A stretch of DNA of 37,180 nucleotides from Bacteroidales bacterium Bact_07 (lineage in GTDB: Bacteria > Bacteroidota > Bacteroidia > Bacteroidales > Tenuifilaceae). The position numbers and the translations under genes were made by a program. The stretch lies in assembly GCA_001603415.1 (NCBI GenBank), contig LUYY01000026.1:1-37180 (forward strand), read 5' to 3'. The notes beneath the pieces are model-generated. The model was not told the DNA's origin and did not search any database. It saw nothing but the letters and a program-made list of their open reading frames with translations. The first letter of the stretch is position 1; each line of letters opens with the position of its first letter. Of the stretch, positions 5,600-28,308 are shown piece after piece.

Positions 5600-5640
5600 G
5601 GTTTAGTTGACATTTGTTGGTTGTTAGTAAAAGAGCATCT

Positions 5641-5750
5641 ATTCCGATTCATTCCGATTCATTCCGATTCATTCCGATTCATTCCGACTCATTCCAACTC
5701 ATTCCGACTCATTCCAACTCATTCCGACTCATTCCGATTCATTCCGACTC
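5641..5750. repeat. Tandem decamer repeat, 11 copies of ATTCCGAYTC/ATTCCAACTC
   Basis: Read directly: 11 consecutive 10-bp units varying only between attccgattc, attccgactc and attccaactc. Confidence 0.97.
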
Positions 5751-5754
5751 ATTC

Positions 5755-5927
5755 TCCTTGGGCTTAACCGTTCACTTTTCATTCCTCTAACTTCCTCTAA
5801 CTCCATCATATTCTGTCTCATTCTCACTTTTAACTTTTAACGGTTCACGCTTAACGGATTCTAACTTCCTCATATCCTCAATTCTTCGGTTTAACGGCTC
5901 ACGATTAACAGTTAACGTTTAACGAAC
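5755..5927. repeat. Degenerate pyrimidine-rich repeat related to the 76-bp units at 27581-28188, ending in TTAACGN heptamers
   Basis: Contains cctctaacttcctctaactccatcatattctgtct and ctaacttcctcatatcctcaattctt; heptamers TTAACTT TTAACGG TTCACGC TTAACGG (5830-5857) and TTAACGG CTCACGA TTAACAG TTAACGT TTAACGA (5891-5925). Confidence 0.85.
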
Positions 5928-5947
5928 TTCTTTTCAATTTTCTTTCT

Positions 5948-5955
5948 TACCTTTA
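5948..5955 (+). promoter_or_regulatory. Putative -7 element TACCTTTA upstream of the DUF2520 gene
   Basis: One mismatch to TAnnTTTG; no clear -33. Confidence 0.35.
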
Positions 5956-5968
5956 TGCACATAATGGG

Positions 5969-26379: not shown

Positions 26380-27510
26380 ATGGATTTTGTAATTAGCCTA
26401 CTGGTTAGCACGCTCGTATCGGGTGTGGCTGCTGCAATTCTTTTAAGTAGAGTATATAAGAACAGTATCTTTGTTAAGGTTGGGGTAGTTTGGCTTATAA
26501 ATCTGTTGTTTATTATGACAACAGTAAGCATTAGGGTTAAATTTTATGATGGCAATACGTTAGTTCGATATCTAATGCTTGCCATTAATGTCTTGTTTAG
26601 TGTGCTGTGTTTCTACTATGCTACCATTAAGGTAGTAAGGCCGCTTTCAAAGGCAATTGCTAAACTTTACAAGTTGGCCGAAGGCGATTTTAACATTCCC
26701 GATGACGACTCATACGTGAACCCTAAAACCGATTTAGGTCAACTAATTCAGGCTACAAATATTATTAGAGAGAACTTTGGCCGGGTTGTGCTGCAAATTC
26801 AGAATAATGTGACTAAGTTACGCGAAATGAGTGATGAACTCAACGCCATTTCAGGCCAATTGGCTGAGGGTTCAGCTGAGGAATCTTCGTCAATCGAGGA
26901 GATTTCTTCCTCCATGGAACAAATTGCAGCTCATATCGAAAAGAATGCCGATAATTCCAAACAAACCGAAGTTTACTCGCGTAAAGTATTAGATGGTGTG
27001 CAAAACCTGAATAAATCGGCTGAGGAGAATTTGGAGGCTATTAACCATATTGCCCAAAAAATCAATGTTATAACTGATATTGCCTTCCAAACCAATATAC
27101 TTGCACTTAATGCCGCCGTTGAGGCAGCCCGTGCCGGTGCGCATGGGAAGGGCTTTGCCGTGGTTGCTGCTGAGGTACGTAAACTTGCTGAAACTAGTAA
27201 GGCCGCAGCCGATGAAATTGTTCAAATGGCCCACAAGAGCGTGAGCGTGGCTCAGCATACCCAAACCATGCTCAACGAACTTATCCCCGATATTACTAAA
27301 ACCACCGAGTTAATTCAGGAGATTACCGCTGCAAGCATTGAGCAACATGTGGGCGTTGAGCAGGTAAATAATGCAATTCAACAGCAAAATGTTGTTGCAC
27401 AGCAAAATGTTGCTATCAGCGAGGAGGTTGTTACAACCAGCAATAAGCTTTCAGAGTTTGCTAACCAGTTTGTGGAATTGGTATCGTATTTTAAGATTAG
27501 GAAGAAATAG
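26380..27510 (+). CDS. Methyl-accepting chemotaxis protein without an obvious extracytoplasmic sensor domain
   Basis: N-terminal hydrophobic helices, HAMP-like [18 protein letters not shown], signalling hairpin [43 protein letters not shown]. Confidence 0.93.
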
Positions 27511-27580
27511 TTTTTGTTAGTTGATTCATTAACTGTATATTTCAATTAGAGAATTTTGTTTTAACTGTTCACTTTTCCTT

Positions 27581-28188
27581 TAACTTCCTCTAACTTCATC
27601 ACATTCTCAATTCTTCTTTTCACGGTTCAAGTTTCACGGCTCACGTTTCACGGACCAAACTTCCTCTAACTTCCTCATATTCTCAATTCTTCTTTTCACG
27701 GTTCACGTTTCCCGGTTCACGTTTCACGGGCCAAACTTCCTCTAACTCCATCATATTCTCAATTCTTCTTTTCACGTTTCACGTTTCCCGGCTCACGTTT
27801 CACGGGCCAAACTTCCTCTAACTTCCTCATATTCTCAATTCTTCTTTTCACGTTTCACGTTTCCCGGCTCACGTTTCACGGACCAAACTTCCTCTAACTT
27901 CATCACATTCTCAATTCTTCTTTTCACGGTTCAAGTTTCACGGCTCACGTTTCACGGACCAAACTTCCTCTAACTTCCTCATATTCTCAATTCTTCTTTT
28001 CACGGTTCACGTTTCCCAGTTCACGTTTCACGGGCCAAACTTCCTCTAACTCCATCATATTCTCAATTCTTCTTTTCACGTTTCACGTTTCCCGGCTCAC
28101 GTTTCACGGGCCAAACTTCCTCTAACTCCATCATATTCTCAATTCTTCTTTTCACGTTTCACGTTTCCCGGCTCACGTTTCACAGACC
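27581..28188. repeat. 76-bp tandem repeat, eight units, in a 304-bp higher-order (4+4) arrangement
   Basis: Unit starts at 27581, 27657, 27733, 27809, 27885, 27961, 28037, 28113, all exactly 76 bp apart; units 1-4 pair with units 5-8. Confidence 0.97.
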
Positions 28189-28274
28189 AAACTTCCTCTA
28201 ACTTCCTCTAACTTCCTCTAACTTCCTCTAACTCCATCACTTTCTGTCTATTCCGACTCATTCCGGCTCATTCC
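28189..28274. repeat. Decamer tail of the 76-bp array: ACTTCCTCTA x4 then ATTCCGACTC/ATTCCGGCTC/ATTCC
   Basis: acttcctcta x4 at 28191-28230; attccgactc (28250-28259), attccggctc (28260-28269), attcc, same decamer as 5641-5750. Confidence 0.93.
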
Positions 28275-28308
28275 TTAAAATTCATGTCACTTGGTGTAAA
28301 TGCATTTC

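What the first reader, a model, noticed from the sequence alone, without database searches (positions are those of the whole stretch)
27581..28188. 76-bp intergenic tandem array with a 304-bp higher-order (4+4) structure
Eight units sit exactly 76 bp apart. Units 1-4 are repeated as units 5-8: by eye, 1/5 differ by 1 base, 2/6 by 1, 3/7 by 0 and 4/8 by 3, whereas adjacent units 1 and 2 differ by about 7. That is the signature of a four-unit block duplicated after the monomers diverged, as in higher-order satellite repeats, and it is uncommon in bacteria. No ORF of 60 aa or more crosses it, and 76 is not a multiple of 3. It lies between a convergent MCP gene and tex.
Basis: seen in the sequence. 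Interest (0 to 1): 0.75.

Follow-up and report, generated by a model that had tools for sequence, protein, structure and literature searches.

The report
Nested intergenic tandem repeat in Bacteroidales
A 76-base non-coding sequence sits eight times in a row, as a four-copy block that was itself duplicated, between two genes of an uncultured Bacteroidales bacterium; close relatives have none or one copy at the same spot, so it looks like a recently grown array of a repeat family scattered through this genus rather than a new kind of genetic system.

Summary
Eight 76-bp units lie at 27582-28189 (500/532 matches at lag 76; best of 200 shuffles 186). Block 1-4 matches block 5-8 at 300/304 bases, against a mean of 4.6 differences between neighbouring units. 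It is non-coding, has no unusual RNA fold, and matches nothing in Rfam, phages, plasmids or two IMG/VR patterns. Unit 8 is a hybrid: 2 differences from unit 7, 3 from unit 4.

The array is the inner part of a composite intergenic repeat built from a decamer AACTTCCTCT, a decamer ATTCCGACTC, heptamers such as TTTCACG, and a 24-bp tail. Such elements number in the dozens per genome in five of the six sister genomes searched and none in the sixth. At this same MCP/tex site relatives carry no repeat, 0, 1 (77 bp), 1 (63 bp) or 8 cassettes. Two further sites also vary between species. Other composite arrays recur in the genus, including one with a 134/289-bp two-level period.

Best reading: a minisatellite grown by slippage or unequal recombination between the decamers flanking one cassette, then one four-unit duplication. 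No function is shown here. Closest known: the intergenic BrickBuilt minisatellite of Porphyromonas, but no terminal inverted repeats were found. The 304-bp duplication comes from one draft assembly.

The parts
27582..28189 (+). 8 x 76-bp tandem array; strand named is the pyrimidine-rich one. Unit = two decamers (AACTTCCTCT AACTTCCTCA), a linker (TATTCTCAATTCTTC) and five heptamers of TTTCACG/GTTCACG type
   Evidence: TRF; unit table
27582..27885 (+). first 304-bp block (units 1-4)
   Evidence: lag-304 identity 300/304; mismatches at 27714, 27824, 27826, 27880
27886..28189 (+). second 304-bp block (units 5-8); unit 8 looks like a hybrid of a unit-7-like 5' part and a unit-4-like 3' end
   Evidence: distance table and variable columns
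27560..27577 (+). left boundary module TTTAACTGTTCACTTTTC, shared with G001, G005 and L069
   Evidence: orthologous alleles
28190..28236 (+). decamer array AACTTCCTCT x 4.4 on the right side; with the decamers at the start of unit 1 it brackets the cassette
   Evidence: TRF; alleles
28250..28274 (+). second decamer family ATTCCGACTC, about 2.5 copies
   Evidence: sequence; genome search
28278..28301 (+). probable degenerate copy of the 24-bp tail GTTAATTCATGGCACTTCGGTTTA (about 8 mismatches over 24; placed by its position right after the decamers)
   Evidence: tail family in sister genomes; this copy is inferred, it was not flagged at 6 mismatches
5641..5924 (+). second composite element in the same window: ATTCCGACTC x 11.4, then a single relative of the 76-bp cassette, between a response-regulator gene and a DUF2520 gene; strongly remodelled in G001
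   Evidence: TRF; own-genome match 5764-5924; comparison with G001
26380..27510 (+). flanking gene, methyl-accepting chemotaxis protein
   Evidence: Pfam PF00015
28309..30474 (-). flanking gene tex, convergent
   Evidence: Pfam Tex_YqgF, Tex_N, HHH, S1

Best explanation
The array is a non-coding intergenic minisatellite. It grew inside a composite intergenic repeat (decamers, heptamers, tail) that a clade of this genus inherited at the MCP/tex site. One cassette bracketed by AACTTCCTCT decamers was multiplied by replication slippage or unequal recombination between those decamers. The copies diverged, and one later four-unit (304-bp) duplication plus a small exchange made the 4+4 pattern and the hybrid unit 8. 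Shown: array, block pattern, nested sub-repeats, dispersed family, and the state series (no repeat, 0, 1, 1, 8 cassettes) in related species. Inferred: the recombination step, the order of events, and that the array is a tolerated spacer with no locus-specific job.
For: Same-site alleles: G002 and G003 no repeat; G001 the composite repeat with 0 cassettes; L069 one 77-bp cassette between decamer blocks; G005 one 63-bp cassette, shorter by 14 bp, the length of two heptamers; window eight. The 0-cassette allele is what loss between the two decamer blocks would leave, the 8-cassette allele what repeated gain would give. Second site: one decamer remnant in G005, a 267-bp element in G001, about two more units in G006. 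Third site (response regulator/DUF2520): window and G001 differ in decamer copy number and layout. Other composite arrays: own genome 78 bp x 3.6; G001 115 bp x 3.0 at 97%, 134/145/289 bp, 145/155 bp; G006 160/133 bp; single-contig G003 143 and 276 bp. Elements are intergenic (80 of 81), with one strand per gap (0 of 124 mixed). No RNA structure (z 0.12 and 1.47), no Rfam hit, no terminator-like site.
Against: In co-directional gaps the pyrimidine-rich strand is the sense strand in 51 regions against 17 (44:17, p = 7e-4, after dropping 12 special cases in G003), with no link to replication direction in G003. A purely inert spacer need not be oriented; but orthologous regions shared by species are not independent, and only G001 is significant on its own. 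The 24-bp tail at preferred distances suggests a defined element that spreads, not just local slippage. No second genome of this species was available, so copy-number change within the species is untested.
Confidence: 0.74

Rival explanations
1. A miniature mobile element carrying a minisatellite, as BrickBuilt in Porphyromonas gingivalis: a transposase acting in trans moves the unit, and repeats inside it expand.
For: Same order; intergenic, dispersed, with a conserved tail and sometimes a matching copy on the left. Three of 100 elements have the left copy inverted. A 50-bp piece of the window unit is 96% identical to a non-orthologous site in G001.
Against: No inverted-end signal: 2 elements with matching inverted 10-mers across the ends against 4.5 in shuffled pairs. 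Left copies of the tail are direct in 16, inverted in 3. No clean empty site or target duplication was found; the smallest allele still keeps one decamer.
Confidence: 0.13
2. A functional cis element: a multi-copy binding site, or a transcript leader or trailer that affects neighbouring genes, with dosage set by copy number.
For: Strand bias relative to transcription in co-directional gaps; heptamer families near start codons in Beggiatoaceae were proposed to act in translation (PMC4679880).
Against: This array lies between convergent genes, upstream of neither. Orthologous sites carry no repeat, 0 or 1 copies. No structure, promoter excess or terminator. Flank identity to G001 (0.86 left, 0.96 right) lies near the upper end of other gaps in the window (0.67-0.94).
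Confidence: 0.1
3. The 304-bp duplication, or the exact copy number, is an assembly error in a draft metagenome-assembled genome.
For: 360 contigs, 78% complete; exact internal repeats of 132 and 109 bp are near the k-mer and read lengths of short-read assemblies.
Against: Blocks differ at four sites, so they are not a simple read-back of one copy. Comparable composite arrays occur in a single-contig relative (G003) and in a 30-contig one. Collapse, not gain, is the usual error, so the true array may be longer.
Confidence: 0.08
4. A CRISPR array or a repeat-encoding gene fragment.
For: Regular period.
Against: No unique spacers: only 10 of 76 columns vary. 76 is not a multiple of 3, stops recur in all frames, and no ATG occurs on the + strand of the array.
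Confidence: 0.01

Closest known systems
BrickBuilt, intergenic minisatellite within a MITE of Porphyromonas gingivalis (Bacteroidales; PMC4596501)
   Same: Always intergenic, dispersed as 19 copies, unit number changes between strains at the same site, partial leader and tail around the repeats, frequent stops.
   Different: 23-bp unit, terminal inverted repeats and 4-bp target duplications; here a 76-bp unit nested from 10-mers and 7-mers, a four-unit super-period, and no inverted-end or target-duplication signal.
TAACTGA heptamer direct repeats in Beggiatoaceae, Cyanobacteria and a few Bacteroidetes (PMC4679880); cyanobacterial STRR heptamers (from memory)
   Same: Short intergenic direct repeats of 7 bp, many per genome, patchy among relatives, copy changes in 7-bp steps, mostly forward to the next gene in Beggiatoaceae.
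   Different: Different heptamers (TTTCACG, TTTAACG), mixed with decamers in a composite unit that is itself amplified.
Non-coding satellites of bacteria as surveyed by Subirana and Messeguer (PMC6749651), e.g. Leptospira interrogans families
   Same: Meets their definition (at least four repeats of 10-200 nt); intergenic, unit length not a multiple of 3, dispersed family.
   Different: That survey reports dispersed non-coding families with long units only in L. interrogans and Methanocella conradii, and its main text does not use the term higher order.
MIRU-type dispersed minisatellites of mycobacteria (from memory; not tested)
   Same: Dispersed intergenic units of tens of bp with variable copy number.
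   Different: No sequence relation was tested; the sub-structure of 7- and 10-mers is not a MIRU feature as far as I recall.

Membership tests
Bacterial satellite/minisatellite (PMC6749651 definition) | at least four tandem repeats of 10-200 nt | tested here: met
   8.2 copies of 76 bp
Bacterial satellite/minisatellite (PMC6749651 definition) | regular unit length | tested here: met
   eight units of exactly 76 bp, no indels
VNTR | copy number differs between strains of one species | not testable with these tools
   one genome of the species held; between-species differences are shown
Higher-order repeat | units n and n+k more alike than neighbours | tested here: met
   lag-4 mean 1.0 against 4.3-6.0 at other lags; 0.95% of unit orders do as well
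BrickBuilt / MITE | terminal inverted repeats | tested here: not met
   2 observed against 4.5 in shuffled pairs; tail copies direct 55, inverted 3
BrickBuilt / MITE | target-site duplication at filled versus empty sites | tested here: inconclusive
   smallest allele found (G005) still holds one decamer, so it is not a clean empty site
BrickBuilt / MITE | dispersed intergenic copies with conserved flank segments | tested here: met
   80 of 81 elements non-coding; tail 6/18/12/12 sites in four genomes, control 0
TAACTGA heptamer repeats | tandem TAACTGA units | tested here: not met
   heptamers here read TTTCACG/GTTCACG
CRISPR | repeats separated by unique spacers | tested here: not met
   10 of 76 columns variable, no spacer
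Structured RNA family (Rfam 15) | match to a covariance model | tested here: not met
   no match to E 1 here or to E 0.5 in five relatives

The most novel reading that the evidence does not exclude
A genus-specific composite element, bounded by 24-bp tail repeats and oriented with transcription, that both spreads between intergenic sites and amplifies internally at several levels (7, 10, about 76-150 and about 300 bp), with the orientation kept by selection or by a transcription-linked copying mechanism not yet described.
Probability: 0.12. Interest if true: 0.65.

Novelty: new variant of a known kind. Interest (0 to 1): 0.4.

Why it matters
The state series at one orthologous site (no repeat, 0, 1, 1, 8 cassettes) gives snapshots of a bacterial satellite in the making, and the block duplication shows that higher-order structure of the kind studied in eukaryotic satellites can arise in a short bacterial intergenic array. 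If the strand bias relative to transcription holds in an independent genus, it would be a clue to what limits or drives repeats of this sort in Bacteroidota.

Tried and rejected
Coding repeat: stops in all frames. CRISPR: no spacers. Structured RNA: no excess folding, no Rfam match. Terminator between convergent genes: none by consensus scan. Phage, plasmid or virus origin: no match. Replication-strand marker: element strand in G003 does not follow the sign of GC skew along the chromosome. Inverted-end mobile element: no signal. Purifying selection on the unit: unit identity to L069 0.84 and flanks 0.85/0.97 exceed fourfold-site identity in tex (0.58), but other intergenic gaps against G001 are at 0.67-0.94 too, so this is not special. 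Literature on Bacteroidota composite repeats beyond the papers cited gave nothing closer.

Full report
Observation. The window is a whole contig (C259) of a draft genome of 2.45 Mb in 360 contigs, 78% complete. TRF places a 76-bp array at 27582-28205, 8.2 copies, 93% matches. In register, the eight units differ from the unit four places on by 0, 1, 0 and 3 bases, and from their neighbour by 2 to 7. The two 304-bp blocks agree at 300 of 304 bases, and the lag-76 match (500/532) is far outside Markov shuffles (best 186 of 532). Only 0.95% of unit orders give as small a lag-4 distance. Unit 8 is closer to units 3 and 7 (2 differences) than to unit 4 (3); it shares CTCCATC with 3/7 and the end GACC with 1, 4 and 5, so it reads as a hybrid.

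Anatomy. Each unit is two decamers (AACTTCCTCT, AACTTCCTCA), a 15-bp linker and five heptamers of the TTTCACG/GTTCACG type; TRF picks up the 14-bp heptamer pairs separately. To the right follow AACTTCCTCT x 4.4 and ATTCCGACTC x 2.5, to the left TTTAACTGTTCACTTTTC. Nothing appears to be coded: no frame is open beyond 75 residues on + or 31 on -. Folding is ordinary on both strands (z 0.12 and 1.47). There is no Rfam match and no terminator-like site. There is no match in phage or plasmid records or, for two exact patterns, in IMG/VR.

A dispersed family. The own genome holds 43 matches to the array region at E up to 10, the array itself included. The decamer pair AACTTCCTCTAACTTCC (up to 2 mismatches) occurs 63 times in it against 1 for the reversed control, and 34-186 times in five sister genomes, but 0 times in G002 of the same genus. 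ATTCCGACTCATTCCGA behaves alike in the three genomes tested. Weaker matches reach some other genera of the family. In ORF-based maps, 80 of 81 elements are non-coding, in loci whose ORF cover is 72-80%. Across 124 element-bearing gaps in four genomes no gap mixes strands. A 24-bp tail, GTTAATTCATGGCACTTCGGTTTA, recurs 6, 18, 12 and 12 times in G000, G001, G005 and G006 and never in G002 or G003, control 0. In 100 elements it was found 39 times on the right, at preferred distances, and 19 times on the left (16 direct, 3 inverted). The window has at best a degenerate tail copy.

Growth at this site. The MCP/tex gap in G002 and G003 has no such repeat. G001 has the composite repeat with no cassette; L069 one 77-bp cassette between decamer blocks; G005 one 63-bp cassette, 14 bp shorter; the window eight. 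L069 lies in a bin labelled Bacillota, which is a mislabel or a mixed bin. A second gap shows one decamer remnant in G005, a 267-bp element in G001 and about two more units in G006. A third, the response-regulator/DUF2520 gap at 5600-5968 of the window, is remodelled against G001. Other composite arrays: own genome 78 bp x 3.6; G001 115 bp x 3.0, 134/145/289 bp and 145/155 bp; G006 160/133 bp; and single-contig G003 143 and 276 bp. The 289-bp super-period in G001 is a second case of higher-order structure.

Mechanism. Cassettes bracketed by identical decamers are what slippage or unequal recombination needs: exchange between the left and right decamer blocks deletes the cassette (G001 state) or doubles it. 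Repeating this and letting units diverge gives a diverse array; one later four-unit duplication gives the 4+4 pattern. The recombination step itself is inferred. The free change between no repeat and eight cassettes at the same site, and its place between convergent genes, argue against a needed function there.

A hint the other way. In co-directional gaps the pyrimidine-rich strand is the sense strand 51 times against 17 (p = 4e-5), or 44:17 (p = 7e-4) after dropping 12 G003 elements that abut displaced toxin-like cassettes. Divergent and convergent gaps carry elements in about the proportion seen in control gaps (37:19 against 22:9). The bias does not follow replication direction in G003. 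Genes were called by a simple ORF rule and orthologous gaps are counted in several species, so the p-values are too small; after that exclusion only G001 is significant on its own (13:2). I take it as a lead.

Comparison with the known. The closest described case is BrickBuilt of Porphyromonas gingivalis (PMC4596501): intergenic, dispersed, with leader and tail and changing unit number, but with terminal inverted repeats and target duplications, which were not met or not shown here. TAACTGA heptamer arrays (PMC4679880) share the 7-bp step, the intergenic place and the patchy spread. The satellite survey (PMC6749651) would count this array as a satellite and reports dispersed non-coding families with long units in only two species. 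I file it as a non-coding bacterial minisatellite, a variant with nested periods, not as a member of the MITE family.

Limits. One genome of the species; short-read-style draft; exact internal repeats of 132 and 109 bp lie near read and k-mer length, so copy number is provisional. Taxonomy beyond Bacteroidales rests on tex relatives.

Noticed in passing
L227, L229, L230, L231, L236, L237, L270, L271 (G003): Twelve decamer elements in G003 directly precede copies of a conserved coding-like stretch (..TFSEKNFV..GTTGNLMDYPTTPALADRYTALIKTQWDLIHNPQSTTGLFDGMEEGA..) followed by different sequences each time; this looks like displaced tips of polymorphic interbacterial toxins in cassette arrays.
   Followed up: partly
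L006 1776-2370 (G000:C240) and L009 2360-3157 (G000:C213): Other large tandem arrays in the own genome, 210 bp x 2.8 and 269 bp x 3.0, containing GCGATGCAACG..GTGCATCGC inverted motifs; the same motif appears singly in G003 gaps (L225, L235).
   Followed up: no
L223 2363-2914 (G003): CRISPR-like array with a repeat near GTCGTAATCCTTGTTTTAGTGGACGTTACTCTCTGAC.
   Followed up: no
G002 (same genus, 99% complete): No AACTTCCTCTAACTTCC decamer pair and no tail at all, although five sister genomes have 34-186 decamer places: a natural comparison genome for gain or loss of the family.
   Followed up: partly
L224, L225, L235 (G003): Several other short motifs recur in gaps of G003: ATGCTTCGACAAGCTCAGCATGACA, CACAGAGTTACACAGAG, TTCAAGATTCAAGATT, GTTAAACGTTAAACG; intergenic DNA there is largely a mosaic of short repeats.
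   Followed up: no
L140 (G005): In G005 other sequence, including an apparent short gene, lies between the repeat and the next upstream gene at the tex site.
   Followed up: no
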